A program made the translations under genes and the position numbers. The notes under the pieces were generated by a model. That model was given only the letters and a program-made list of their open reading frames with translations, was not told where the DNA came from and did no database searches. From Tengunoibacter tsumagoiensis (GTDB taxonomy: Bacteria; Chloroflexota; Ktedonobacteria; Ktedonobacterales; Ktedonobacteraceae), in contig NZ_BIFR01000001.1 of NCBI RefSeq assembly GCF_003967535.1, positions 4,339,001-4,403,000 on the forward strand: DNA of 64,000 nt, given 5' to 3'. Of this stretch, positions 8,632 to 53,330 are shown in pieces; position 1 is the first letter of the stretch; the number at the start of each line of letters is the position of its first letter.

Positions 8632-10341
8632 ATGAGTTTATCTATCCCCCGCCAGACGTATGCCGATCTCTATGGACCGACAACAGGTGATCGCGTCCGT
8701 CTGGCCGATACCGAATTAATTATTGAGGTTGAGAAGGACTTTACTATTTACGGCGATGAGATTACTTTTGGTGGCGGCAAGGTGATCCGTGATGGTATGG
8801 GACAGAGTAGCCGCTCTACTTCTGCGCTCGATCTGGTGATTACCAACGCTCTGATCCTGGATCATTGGGGGATTGTCAAAGGCGATATTGGGATCAAACA
8901 TGGTCGCATTGTCAAGGTTGGCAAAGCTGGCAATCCCGATACGATGGAAGGGGTCGATCCCGCTCTGATTGTGGGGGCAAGCACTGAGGTTATTGCTGGC
9001 GAAAATCTCATTGTGACCGCTGGCGGCATTGATAGCCATATTCACTTTATTGCACCACAACAGATCTATGAGGCGATGTCAAATGGAATCACGACGATGA
9101 TCGGAGGTGGGACGGGGCCAGCGACGGGCACCAATGCGACGACCTGTACGCCAGGAGTCTGGAATATGGCGCGCATGCTACAATCCGCCGAGGCATGGCC
9201 AGTGAACTTTGGCTTCCTGGGCAAAGGAAATGCCTCTACTCGTGAGCCGCTGGCCGAGCAGATTCGCGCTGGTGCCTGTGGCCTCAAATTACACGAGGAC
9301 TGGGGAACCACACCCGCCGCAATCGATATCTGCCTCAAGGCCGCAGATGAGTATGATGTGCAGGTTGCCATCCATACCGATACAATCAATGAAGCAGGCT
9401 TTGTGGAAGATACGATCGCGGCGATCGCTGGTCGCACCATCCATACCTATCATACCGAAGGGGCTGGTGGTGGCCATGCGCCCGATATCATCAGGATCGC
9501 CTCGTTCCCCAATATTCTTCCGTCTTCGACAAATCCAACACGCCCCTATACCGTGAATACCATTGCGGAGCACCTGGATATGTTGATGGTCTGCCACCAT
9601 CTGAATTCCCAGGTACCTGAAGATGTCGCTTTTGCAGAGAGCCGAATCCGACCAGAGACGATTGCAGCCGAGGATATTTTGCACGATCTTGGCGTCTTTA
9701 GCATGATCTCTAGTGATTCCCAGGCGATGGGACGCGTTGGCGAGGTCGTCACGCGAACGTGGCAGACGGCCCATAAGATGAAGGTCCAGCGCGGTCCTCT
9801 CGCCGAGGATTCAACCCGCAATGATAATCTTCGTGCCAGACGCTATATAGCCAAATATACGATCAATCCTGCCATTACCCATGGGATCGCAGAACATGTC
9901 GGCTCCATCGAGCCCGGCAAACTGGCGGATCTCGTGCTCTGGCGGCCCGCTTTCTTTGGCACCAAACCAGAGATGATTGTCAAGGGAGGCTTGATCTCCT
10001 GGAGCGCGATGGGCGATGCCAATGCCTCCATTCCAACTCCTCAACCAATCCTTTATCGTCCGATGTTTGGCTCCTTTGGTCGTGCAACCGCTGCTACCAG
10101 CGTGACCTTTGTCTCTCAGGCCTCGCTCGAGGCTGAGGTGCCTGCTCAGTTGGGACTCCAGAAGCAGGCGGTCGCTGTACAGGCCTGTCGTTCGATTGGC
10201 AAGGCTCAGATGATCCACAATTCTGCTACCCCCAACATTGAGGTCGATCCCGAGACCTATGAGGTGCGTGCAGATGGTGAGCTCTTGACCTGCGAACCTG
10301 CAACGGTCCTCCCCATGGCTCAGAAATATTTTCTCTTTTAA
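8632..10341 (+). CDS. ureC: Urease alpha subunit UreC
   Basis: 569 residues, the family's usual length. All landmarks of the di-nickel site are readable: the HIH pair in [12 protein letters not shown], the lysine to be carbamylated in [21 protein letters not shown], the [12 protein letters not shown] segment, the mobile-flap MVCHHLN, and the Asp in [13 protein letters not shown]. The C-terminus [10 protein letters not shown] is typical. The enzyme hydrolyses urea in the cytoplasm and needs UreD, UreF and UreG for nickel loading. The ATG is preceded by AGAGGG. The 290 bases upstream hold the GC-rich hairpin and probably a separate promoter. Nothing looks degenerate, so the enzyme should be active. 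Confidence 0.97.
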
Positions 10342-26785: not shown

Positions 26786-28663
26786 TTACAGCAAGGTTAA
26801 CAGGCTGTTGAGACGATTGACAAAGGTCACGGGATTCTCTAACTGCTCGCCGCTGCTCAAGACAGACTGGTCGAAGAGCACGTTTGCCCAATCGCTAAAA
26901 CGCCCTTCATTGTGCTCCTGTTTGATCTTTAGCACAATTGGATGCTGCGGATTAATCTCTAGAATGGGTTTATCCTCAGGGACGTTCTGGCCGGCAGATT
27001 GTAAAAGCCGCTTCAGGCTTGGATCAAGTCCATACTCATCAACCACCAGACAGGCCGGAGAGGAGATCAGGCGCGTGGTCGTGCGAACATCTTTGACTTT
27101 GTCGCCCAGCACCACTTTGAGTCGATCCAGCAGGTCTTTGGCCTCATCGGCGCTCTTCTGCTGCTCCTCTTTCTCCTGTTCGTCCTCAAATTTCGAGAGG
27201 TCAACCTCGCCTTTGGAGACGGATTGGAGCTGCGTGCCCTGGAATTCGCGGAGCTCAGGAATCGCAATATGATCAACAGGATCGGAGAGCAAGAGAACTT
27301 CGAGCCCTTTCTTCTTGAAGATCTCCAGCAAGGGACTATCATTGGCAGCCGCATGGCTATCTGCAACAATATAGTAGATCTTGTCCTGGCCCTCTTTCAT
27401 GCGTCCTACATACTCTTCCAGGGAGACATCCTGTGTCTCTCCAGATGAGGCAGTTGTGGAGAAGCGCAGCAGTTTGCCCAGGGTCTCACGATTGGCGAAA
27501 TCTTCCAGAAGACCTTCTTTAAGGACGCGACCAAACTCACGCCAGAAAGTGGCATACTTCTCTTTATCGTTGTTAGCAATATCAGAGAAGAGTCCCAGAA
27601 CTTTCTTGACCGAGTTCGAGCGAATGGCGTCGATCATCTTATTCTGCTGTAAGAGCTCACGTGAGACGTTCAATGGCAGGTCATTCGAGTCGATGACACC
27701 ACGAATGAAACGGAGATAGCGGGGCATAAGCTTCTCAGCATCGTCCATGATGAAGACACGGCGCACATACAGCTTGACGCCATGGTGATATTCGCGTGAG
27801 AAGAGGTCAAATGGAGCCTGACCAGGGACATACAGCAGGATCGTGTATTCCTGTACACCTTCCATCCGGCTATGAACATACGCCAGAGGGGTATTGAAGT
27901 CATGCGCCACATGCTTGTAGAATTCGTTGTATTCCTCTTCAGTGATCTCGCTCTTCGATCGAGTCCAGAGGGCGGAGGCACTATTGACGACCTCGTATTC
28001 GTCCTTATCCTCAGCCTCGACCTTCATCTCGATTGGCAGCATAATATGGTCAGAGTATTTGCGGACGATGGTGCGGAGTTGATAGCCGCTAAGGAACTCG
28101 TCCTCATCCTCGCGCAGATGGAGGATGACATCGGTTCCTCGACCCTCTTTCTCGATGGTCTCCAGCGTATATTCACCCTGGCCATTGGATTCCCACTGCA
28201 CGCCCTCTTCGACAGCAGCGCCAGCGCGACGGGTCAGCACAGTGACTTTATCGGCCACAACAAAAGATGAGTAGAAACCAACACCAAACTGACCAATGAT
28301 ATTGGCATCCTTCTGTTGATCACCCGTCAAAGATTGGAAGAACTCACGCGTTCCAGATTTGGCAATGGTGCCAAGATGCTGGATCACGTCCTCTCGCGTC
28401 ATACCAATACCATTATCAGATACAGTAATTGTTCGAGCATCCTTATCATAGGTGACGCGAATCTTAAAATTTGAATCATGTTCATATAGGGCCGAGTTGG
28501 ACAGTGCATCAAACCGCAAACGGTCGATCGCATCAGAAGCATTGGAGATAAGCTCGCGTAAAAAGATCTCCTTATTGCTGTACAGCGAGTGAATCATCAG
28601 ATCCAAAAGCTGTTTTACTTCAGCCTGAAAACCTAATGTCTCCTTATGAGTATCTGTCGCCAT
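26786..28663 (-). CDS. htpG: Molecular chaperone HtpG (Hsp90)
   Basis: 625 residues, full length for bacterial Hsp90. The N-terminal ATPase domain shows the GHKL motifs: [38 protein letters not shown] and '[10 protein letters not shown]'. The middle domain carries the conserved 'LYVRRVFI' and '[11 protein letters not shown]' segments, with the arginine that contacts ATP. The C-terminal dimerisation domain follows and ends without an MEEVD tail, as expected in bacteria. It folds and remodels client proteins in the cytoplasm with DnaK. AGAGAGG lies eight bases before the ATG. I saw no CIRCE element upstream, so HrcA control is not evident. Confidence 0.97.
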
Positions 28664-28862: not shown

Positions 28863-29596
28863 CACCATACCAGCCAGCCCCTCTATAACATCGTTTCCGT
28901 TTCCAATGAAGCCATGGTGGGGCTCACACAGCGGAATGGGACCAGTGGAAAGAGACAAGCTACTTTCCCTACTTTACATTGTATGATATTATTTATCATG
29001 TACGAGACAAGAAAAAAAGTAGGAAAGGTCGCTTGTCTCCTTCCACAACGTGAAGCTCCACCATGGTCGCCCCTCCATAGCATCATTTCCCGTTTCCAAT
29101 GAAGCCATGGTGGGGCTCACACAGCGGAATGGGAACCGCGGAAAGAGACAAGCAACTTTCCCTACTTTACAGTGCATGATACGTTTTTGCTGTGAAATAT
29201 CACAATACAAGTAGGGAAGGTCGCTTGTCTCCTTCCACAACGTGAAGCTCCACCATGGTCGCCCCACCATAGCATCATTTCCCGTTTCCAATGAAGCCAT
29301 GGTGGGGCTCACACAGCGGAATGGGAACCGTGGAAAGAGACAAGCAACTTTCCCTACTTTACAGTGCATGATACGTTTTTGCTGTGGAAGATCACAATAC
29401 AAGTAGGGAAGGTCGCTTGTCTCCTTCCGCAACGTGAAGCTCCACCATGCCAGCCCCTCCATAACCTCATTTCCCACTCCCCACGTAAGCCATAGTGGGG
29501 CTCACACAGCGGAATGGGAACCGTGGAAAGAGACAAGCTACTTTCCCTACTATATATGCAGAATGTGTTTTTGTTGCGGAAGATCATAATACAAGT
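28863..29596. repeat. Tandem array of 193-bp fold-back (hairpin) units
   Basis: Three nearly complete units start at 28898, 29091 and 29283 (periods of 193, 192 and 193 bases). A truncated fourth runs from about 29476 to 29596, and the tail of a preceding unit lies at 28863-28897. Units are almost identical. Each is itself a long imperfect palindrome: the left arm (GCCATGGTGGGGCTC, then GAGACAAGC and TTTCCCTACTT) is complemented by the right arm (AAGTAGGGAA, GCTTGTCTC, GAAGCTCCACCATGG). Each could form a hairpin of roughly 160 bases in DNA or RNA. It lies between htpG and the sensor-like membrane protein. Open frames across it follow the repeats and are not genes. Confidence 0.92.
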
Positions 29597-29742
29597 TATG
29601 CAGCTCAACTTAATGTCTCTGATACAGTCCCCTGGATGCATGATAACTATCTGCAACATTGGAATGCTGAAGCATTGAACAGGTCATGACCCCCCACAAT
29701 TCAAATCGAGGGCTTTCATTCAAGCCGAAAGTAAATGGCCGT

Positions 29743-31425
29743 TTAAAAATCCTTCAGTCGCTGTAACACGCCCCAGACCGTCAACAGACCGGTCAAAGGA
29801 AAGAGCAGGACAGTTAACCACAGGTAGAGGTTGATCGCGCTACGGGTATCAGCGAGCGTCTGATTATAATGATCATAATTGGCCTTACTTAAGGCCGAGA
29901 CTGCGTCTGAGAAGCCAGAAAAATCGGTATTTGACTCACCTGTACTTAAGGTTTCTGCACCATTCAAATCTCCACCACCAGCGACCGCACGTATCCTGAC
30001 ATCAATGCTTTTATACGCCTGCCACTGCTGATCCATCGCGCTTAAAGGCTGATCCTCCTCGTTCCAGGTTCGATTATTGTGTGCAGCTTGCTTCAATGTC
30101 TCTATCTGCTTGACGTTTGCCTGCCAATCAGCATCCCACTTATTGATCTGCTCCTGATCCTTAAATGCCAGAGCAATAAGCCAGCGAGACTCATCGGCAT
30201 TGGCCTGGGTGCCGATTCGCTTCAGGCGAGTAGCAGCATACACGCTGGCATAATCATCCTGAACAAGCTGCTGATAGGCCCCATGTTGCAGTGCATCGGC
30301 TGAAGCTGGCTGGCCCATCAAATTTCCCATGGTGGCCAGGAGCAGGAGACTGATCACTACACAGATAAGCAGGGCAGGCGTTAGCCCGGGATTCAGCACC
30401 CGATGATTCATAAACATCAGACGCAGAACCACGAACAAGAGCAATGTCCCAAAGGTCAGACAGAAGAGGAGGCTTACCCAGAAGGTCATCGTTAAAAAAT
30501 TCTGGCTATCCCCATAGGCCTGCTGAAGATGCTCATTATTGATCGAGCTTAAACATTCAACATTACTTTCAATACCCCCAAAAGCCCATTCTTTGGGATC
30601 AGCCAGATGCTGATCGGCACCGATTGAGCAGGACGGAAGGCTCGCAAAGTCTTCGACAAACTGTGGCGTATGATGAATCTTTGTCTGGAGAATAGCATTG
30701 GCATGCAGATAGGTCGCGTATGCCTTGCTCAGATGTGGATCGTTTGGATCATTCTTACTCGCCGCCGCCGCATACTCCTGCTGTATAACCGTCCAATCGC
30801 CTACATATTCTTCCAGGCCGACGGTAATTCTTTCTGTCGCAGTACGCTCGCCCGGATACGAGGCATTATGGATCGCATTAAATAGTTGCTGATTGGTCAT
30901 AACAATCTCTGCATCGATATTGTGTTGATCACAATCATGGACCGTCAGTTGCCCAATCACAGTACTTCCATGCGCCGTAACAAGCGAGCATGGCTCCTGC
31001 GTGGTTAAAGAACCGGTTGCCAGGAAATCAGCAACTTTCGCATCAATATCATTGATATACTGGCCCATAGTCTGAGCGGCATCAACGCTGGGCACACTAC
31101 CACTGGCAATGGTCTCCAGATCGTTAGAGGCGCGGGTAAGCGACTGCCAGCTATAGAGAGCCAACAAGAGCGACAGAAGAAGGGTCAACGCGGCCAGGCT
31201 GATAAATTGCCCCCTGAGCGTCTTACGAGCTGCCAGCCAGACACGAGAGGCAGCAGCCTTTAGCGCCCCATTCTGCGTGGCAGACGGGCTCTGCTGCTTC
31301 TGTACGCCACTCCCGGATGGAGCTGCACTGGAAGGAGTATAGTATGACGTGGTATGGATCGTAGGAGTACTATTCGGCGCTTGCTTTGGAGTTGGGGTTG
31401 CCACTGACCCCTGTCGTCCAGCCAT
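29743..31425 (-). CDS. Four-TM sensor-like membrane protein in a PknG-like kinase cluster
   Basis: 560 residues. A disordered Pro/Ser/Thr/Gln-rich cytoplasmic N-terminus of about 65 residues is followed by TM1 (about 75-95), an extracellular helical region of about 220 residues with Cys pairs, TM2 and TM3 (about 320-385), a second extracellular helical region of about 150 residues, and TM4 near the C-terminus, which ends in a short cytoplasmic tail. The layout resembles chemoreceptor-like four-helix-bundle sensors without a signalling domain. It resembles in outline the membrane protein GlnX that works with PknG in mycobacteria, but I cannot show homology by eye. It is downstream of the VWA and kinase genes on the same strand (73-base gap) and could be the sensor for that kinase. 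Confidence 0.8.
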   Translation of the reverse strand: MAGRQGSVATPTPKQAPNSTPTIHTTSYYTPSSAAPSGSGVQKQQSPSATQNGALKAAASRVWLAARKTLRGQFISLAALTLLLSLLLALYSWQSLTRASNDLETIASGSVPSVDAAQTMGQYINDIDAKVADFLATGSLTTQEPCSLVTAHGSTVIGQLTVHDCDQHNIDAEIVMTNQQLFNAIHNASYPGERTATERITVGLEEYVGDWTVIQQEYAAAASKNDPNDPHLSKAYATYLHANAILQTKIHHTPQFVEDFASLPSCSIGADQHLADPKEWAFGGIESNVECLSSINNEHLQQAYGDSQNFLTMTFWVSLLFCLTFGTLLLFVVLRLMFMNHRVLNPGLTPALLICVVISLLLLATMGNLMGQPASADALQHGAYQQLVQDDYASVYAATRLKRIGTQANADESRWLIALAFKDQEQINKWDADWQANVKQIETLKQAAHNNRTWNEEDQPLSAMDQQWQAYKSIDVRIRAVAGGGDLNGAETLSTGESNTDFSGFSDAVSALSKANYDHYNQTLADTRSAINLYLWLTVLLFPLTGLLTVWGVLQRLKDF

Positions 31426-53160: not shown

Positions 53161-53330
53161 GGGGTCCGAGGCCATCATGAATGATGGGCCCTACCTTCTC
53201 AGGCGATAAATCGCTCTTTTGCTCGATGTGTATTTTAATTCGCTCGGGGTCCGAGGCCATCATAAATAACGGTCCCTACCTTCTCAGGCGATAAATCGCT
53301 CTTTTTCTTGATATATATCGTAATTTGTTC
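53161..53330. repeat. Two tandem copies of an 85-bp intergenic repeat
   Basis: Copies start at 53161 and 53246. Each begins GGGGTCCGAGGCCATCAT, contains CCCTACCTTCTCAGGCGAT and ends in AT-rich sequence. Each holds two small dyads (GGCCATCA/TGATGGGCC, intact only in copy 1, and GCGAT-AA-ATCGC). It occupies the gap between the S53 peptidase gene and the glycosidase-like gene, which is otherwise empty. Confidence 0.85.

What the first reader, a model, noticed from the sequence alone, without database searches (positions are those of the whole stretch)
28863..29596. Tandem array of 193-bp fold-back units next to htpG
Three nearly identical units plus truncated ends repeat with a period of 192-193 bases. 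Each unit is a long imperfect palindrome able to form a hairpin of about 160 bases. The array is non-coding, has no transposase and does not look like CRISPR. It could be a tandemly amplified MITE-like element, a source of structured RNA, or a chromosomal protein-binding array.
Basis: seen in the sequence. Interest (0 to 1): 0.68.

Follow-up and report, generated by a model that had tools for sequence, protein, structure and literature searches.

The report
REP/BIME array targeted by insertion sequences
The array is one of at least 60 dispersed clusters of short GTAG-tagged palindromes (REP elements, paired as in BIMEs) in a Ktedonobacterales-type genome; the kind is known, but this family is seen in no other genome searched, and three unrelated insertion sequences jump into it, two of them apparently with guide RNAs that spell out its sequence.

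Summary
In detail: 28877-29596 holds 3.8 units of 192 bp. The reading as one long hairpin, MITE or structured RNA is not the best one. Each arm of the supposed ~160-nt hairpin is a 26-nt REP of its own: a GTAG tag, a 6-bp stem and a 10-nt loop. The unit is two REPs with tags facing inward, tandemly repeated, as in BIMEs. Positions that mismatch in the long hairpin (A·C, T·G) pair perfectly in the local stems; the 3' REP stem covaries (GGAAGG/CCTTCC versus GGCAGG/CCTGCC: 44 and 15 arrays, two exceptions), while the 28-bp long stem shows no covariation. I read 244 units at 63 intergenic loci of this 7.7-Mb genome, a median of 60 bp from gene 3' ends and 230 bp from 5' ends. No relative was found in 46 other genomes of the class or, by exact pattern, in 84,980 species. 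All copies of two IS110 elements (3/3, 1/1) and all three full copies of an IS4-like element lie inside arrays; both IS110 leaders carry four bridge-RNA-like guides matching target and donor. No RAYT was found; the three Y1 transposases belong to IscB-type IS605 elements. New member of a known kind.

The parts
28877..29596 (+). BIME-like array: 3 full units of about 192 bp plus one unit truncated in its 3' half
   Evidence: TRF, nhmmer with the family profile
28877..28923 (+). stem A of unit 1 (13-bp hairpin in the longer inter-REP segment)
   Evidence: pairs counted
28947..28972 (-). REP 1 (GTAG tag on the - strand; GGAAAG/CTTTCC stem)
   Evidence: pattern
29019..29044 (+). REP 2 (GTAG tag, stem GAAAGG/CCTTCC with one mismatch)
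   Evidence: pattern
29069..29116 (+). stem A of unit 2
29140..29165 (-). REP 3
   Evidence: pattern
29211..29236 (+). REP 4 (GTAG-GGAAGG-TCGCTTGTCT-CCTTCC)
   Evidence: pattern
29261..29308 (+). stem A of unit 3
29332..29357 (-). REP 5
   Evidence: pattern
29403..29428 (+). REP 6
   Evidence: pattern
29453..29501 (+). stem A of the truncated unit 4
29525..29550 (-). REP 7; its inverted partner is missing
   Evidence: pattern; the profile match ends at 29597
26786..28663 (-). flanking gene htpG (HSP90, PF00183); the array lies 214 bp upstream of its start
   Evidence: Pfam 3.5e-135; distance
29743..31425 (-). flanking gene, 560-aa protein with a 4HB_MCP_1 sensory domain; the array lies 146 bp past its stop
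   Evidence: Pfam 1.5e-7; ORF; distance

Best explanation
The array is a cluster of GTAG-tagged REP elements arranged as a BIME. Each ~192-bp unit holds two 26-nt REPs (GTAG + 6-bp stem + 10-nt loop) in inverted orientation with tags facing inward across a variable AT-rich spacer, and a longer inter-REP segment that carries a 13-bp hairpin. Shown: the anatomy, the covariation of the local stem, the dispersal over at least 60 intergenic loci close to 3' ends, the greater similarity within arrays, and the insertion of one IS4-like and two IS110 elements at defined points of the REP. Inferred: REPs were spread as non-autonomous elements by a Y1 (RAYT-type) enzyme now lost or unrecognised; arrays then grew in place by slippage or unequal recombination; they persist because 3' intergenic DNA tolerates them. 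Insertion sequences use them as harmless, many-copy landing sites, the IS110 elements by bridge RNAs that match the REP. Any host role (3'-end mRNA hairpins, gyrase or IHF binding) is inference from E. coli BIMEs.
For: REP anatomy: GTAG precedes the 3' stem in at least 148 of 160 units and the 5' stem (reverse complement) in at least 149 of 160. Local stems: 98.2% of cells paired, 11 cells changed on both sides against 3.0 +/- 1.3 in shuffles (0 of 500), covariation score 0.041 against 0.013. The long stem shows none: 0.022 against 0.023. Copy number: REP pattern 176 + 170 hits against 0 for the control; 5'-arm pattern 138 + 140 against 1; 63 loci and 244 units read. Location: 0 of 75 arrays or fragments overlap a gene call; median 3' distance 60, 5' distance 230 bp. 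In-place growth: nearest neighbour in the same array for 97 of 150 units, shuffles at most 8. IS insertions; bridge-RNA guides, read by the rules of PMC11208160. IS110 and IS4 members targeting REPs have precedent (PMC1525189).
Against: No RAYT: the three Y1_Tnp genes sit beside IscB-type ORFs with no REP nearby. The 6-bp stem and 10-nt loop are at the short-stem, long-loop end of the published ranges (stem 5-13, loop 2-20; PMC3733652). The covariation rests mainly on one pair and may be few events inherited by many arrays. Nearly all REPs found lie inside arrays (one weak match outside), whereas most REP families also have singletons; the fetched loci were, however, chosen for arrays.
Confidence: 0.87

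Rival explanations
1. A MITE-like non-autonomous DNA transposon of ~190 bp that inserted as a unit and was then tandemly amplified.
For: Dispersed, palindromic, no coding capacity.
Against: No target-site duplication at array edges above chance; array ends fall at many positions of the unit; no IS with matching ends was found; the unit resolves into two tagged REPs.
Confidence: 0.06
2. A family of structured non-coding RNAs or cis-regulatory hairpins selected for the long fold-back.
For: Strong fold, z = -8.7; arrays lie close to 3' ends.
Against: No compensatory change in the long stem; orientation relative to flanking co-directional genes 25 same to 17 opposite; no Rfam match over the array; loci carry different numbers of units.
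Confidence: 0.04
3. A host-serving chromosomal binding array (gyrase, nucleoid protein) of REP type that is maintained by selection.
For: Exact-match loci on C1 lie nearer to dnaA than expected (KS p = 0.008); E. coli BIME-2 binds gyrase (PMC2817692).
Against: Absent from all other genomes of the class searched; unit number and sequence vary widely; no binding data.
Confidence: 0.15

Closest known systems
GTAG-tagged REPs and BIMEs (Di Nocera et al. 2013, PMC3733652; Nunvar et al. 2010, PMC2817692)
   Same: GTAG tag directly before a short palindrome, high copy number, intergenic and near 3' ends, inverted pairs, tandem clusters; tags inward = their 'TT dimer', with the variable spacer between tags as they describe.
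   Different: Own sequence family in a Chloroflexota genome (GTAG repeats had been noted in that phylum); long units with an additional 13-bp stem; almost only in tandem arrays; no RAYT found.
IS621 / IS110 bridge-RNA elements in E. coli REPs (PMC11208160)
   Same: CT core; the IS621 target ATCAGGC-CT-AC and the IS110-1 target GACTTTCC-CT-AC both put the core on the CTAC (GTAG) tag of the REP; four guides in the order LTG, RTG, LDG, RDG.
   Different: Different recombinases and guide sequences; a second IS110 here targets the distal stem of the same REP (GTCTC-CT-TCC).
ISRm22 (IS4) and ISPpu9/ISPpu10 (IS110) in REPs (Tobes and Pareja 2006, PMC1525189)
   Same: All copies of one IS inside REPs, including the IS4 and IS110 families.
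   Different: Here the IS4-like element duplicates 12 bp that span the REP loop, in 3 of 3 full copies.

Membership tests
REP (GTAG superfamily) | GT(A/G)G tag adjacent to the palindrome | tested here: met
   At least 148/160 3' REPs and 149/160 5' REPs carry GTAG
REP (GTAG superfamily) | 20-40 bp imperfect palindrome, stem 5-13 bp, loop 2-20 nt | tested here: met
   26 nt, stem 6, loop 10; 144 of 154 5' stems and 113 of 133 3' stems perfect
REP (GTAG superfamily) | High copy number, extragenic, mostly downstream of genes | tested here: met
   346 hits at up to 3 mismatches; no overlap with gene calls; 60 against 230 bp
REP (GTAG superfamily) | Cognate RAYT gene flanked by the same REPs (usual, not obligatory) | tested here: not met
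   Only IscB-linked IS605-type TnpA genes, no REP in their flanks. [quoted passage not shown]
BIME | Regularly spaced REPs in alternating orientation, tandemly reiterated | tested here: met
   REPs at 28947 -, 29019 +, 29140 -, 29211 +, 29332 -, 29403 +, 29525 -
BIME | Gyrase / IHF / Pol I binding | not testable with these tools
   needs ChIP or in vitro binding
MITE | Target-site duplication | tested here: not met
   Common words of 8 or more at the two array edges: 3 observed, 1.5 expected
MITE | Terminal inverted repeats shared with an autonomous IS | tested here: inconclusive
   IS elements found in arrays have unrelated ends; not every IS of the genome was checked
IS110 (for the inserted elements) | DEDD_Tnp_IS110 and Transposase_20 domains; guides for target and donor in the leader | tested here: met
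   Element 1: both Pfam domains. Element 2: only Transposase_20 was searched. Guides of both; expression not testable here

The most novel reading that the evidence does not exclude
REP/BIME proliferation in this lineage does not depend on a RAYT: arrays are copied by another activity (for example the IS605/IscB TnpA or recombination), and the REP family has become the shared, guide-RNA-addressed landing pad of two IS110 elements that evolved to two different points of the same 26-nt element.
Probability: 0.12. Interest if true: 0.6.

Novelty: new member of a known kind. Interest (0 to 1): 0.36.

Why it matters
It extends well-formed REP/BIME arrays to a Ktedonobacterales-type genome and shows a parallel to E. 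coli: an IS110 element with its CT core on the GTAG tag, as IS621 does. Two natural bridge RNAs that address two sites in one repeat give ready-made target and donor pairs for testing IS110 rules outside Proteobacteria. It also shows how a covariation count tells a long apparent hairpin from the short palindromes that are really conserved.

Tried and rejected
Long-stem RNA: rejected by the pair counts. Coding repeat: periods are not multiples of three. Apparent arm-length coupling (short/short stems): a count showed 15 units with a long 5' arm and a short 3' arm against 2 short/short, so there is no coupling (the '(3,11)' class there is a regex artefact). Target duplication at array edges: none. 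Homologues elsewhere: only one chance match in 84,980 species, Phocaeicola, none in viral contigs, none in 60 relatives or the other 46 class members. Analogous arrays in samples of four relatives: no ~190-bp fold-back arrays seen. RAYT: not found. A supposed remnant of IS110-2 at L080: no IS sequence there, only a similar native stretch. Interrupted arrays in L048, L052 and L058 contain ordinary genes, not transposases.

Full report
Observation. The array is real: 28877-29596, period 192, 3.8 copies, in the gap between htpG and a 4HB_MCP_1 protein gene, both on the - strand. One unit folds with z = -8.7 on either strand.

Distribution. The genome (7.70 Mb, two contigs; window = C1:4339001-4403000) holds many more copies: 229 matches in the DNA search, with 93-95 candidate places. 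I fetched about 57 regions and read 244 units at 63 loci, most with 2-6 units. The count is a lower bound. No relative was found in 60 related genomes, in the other 46 genomes of the class, or by exact pattern in 84,980 species apart from one chance match. That the genome is of the Ktedonobacterales type is my reading of its size, gene content and kin; the tools gave no name.

What is conserved. An alignment of 55 units, one per array, shows that each arm of the apparent hairpin is itself a small palindrome next to GTAG: GTAG-GGAAGG-TNGCTTGTCT-CCTTCC on one strand, and GTAG-GGAAAG-TNGCTTGTCT-CTTTCC on the other. The positions that never pair in the long hairpin (A·C in 58 of 59 and T·G in 47 of 48) pair perfectly in these local stems. 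Pair counts with shuffles favour the local stems (11 cells changed on both sides, shuffles 3.0 +/- 1.3, 0 of 500) and not the long stem. The main covarying pair is A-T in 44 arrays and C-G in 15, with one array each of A-G and C-T. These counts are of sequences, not independent events.

Interpretation. This is the anatomy of GTAG REPs in inverted pairs, that is, BIMEs (PMC2817692, PMC3733652). Tags face inward, the 'TT dimer' of PMC3733652, where such spacers are said to be variable; here the spacer between the tags is the least conserved part of the unit. Arrays avoid genes and 5' ends and lie near 3' ends, as reported for REPs. My gene calls are a home-made hexamer score, so distances are approximate. 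Units resemble their array mates (0.84 against 0.75 identity), which suggests amplification in place; five arrays next to what look like rRNA operons share flanks and are better explained by duplication of that region.

Insertion sequences. IS110-1 (391 aa) has three copies, all inside arrays, at GACTTTCC-CT-ACTT. Its leader holds ACTTTCCCT, AGTAG, ACGGTATC and ATACAAG in the order expected for LTG, RTG, LDG and RDG (rules in PMC11208160). IS110-2 has one copy, inside an array, at GTCTC-CT-TCC, with TTGTCTCC, CGGAAG, GAGGGTC and ATAGAAG; its right end resembles a native stretch of some units, so its exact boundary is less certain. The IS4-like element (DDE_Tnp_1, 467 aa) has three full copies, each with a 12-bp duplication that spans the REP loop. 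Three other IS110 copies in the genome show no array within the fetched flank. IS110 and IS4 elements confined to REPs are known (PMC1525189). The bridge RNAs are predicted from sequence; none was shown to be expressed.

What is missing. No RAYT was found: the three Y1_Tnp genes lie beside IscB-type ORFs and have no REP in their flanks. Loss is known in other species, so this does not exclude the family, but the mobilising enzyme is open. Host function was not tested.

Verdict. A new REP/BIME family of a known kind, with a clear example of insertion sequences addressing it.

Noticed in passing
window 53161-53325 (GTAGGGCCCATCATTCATGATGGCC at 53170, - strand); also L047 13479-13786, L048 10292-10486, L090 4335-4581, L092 8194-8461: A second dispersed repeat with a GTAG tag and a palindrome, apparently another REP family of the same genome.
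   Followed up: partly
L099, L100, L101: IS605-type elements with a Y1 transposase next to a 421-436 aa IscB-like ORF; the IscB naming is from sequence features, no profile was run.
   Followed up: partly
C1 of G000: 38 exact-match array loci lie closer to dnaA (C1:119) than a uniform spread (KS p = 0.008); a second full DnaA match is at C1:4770158.
   Followed up: partly
window 8787-9073 (-): Rfam 5_ureB_sRNA match (89 bits); probably only the antisense of a ureB gene, not checked.
   Followed up: no
L080, L045, L046, L069, L083: Arrays next to what look like rRNA operons, with shared flanks of about 5.5 kb at 97% identity; identified as rRNA from size and promoter-like sequence, not by an Rfam search.
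   Followed up: no
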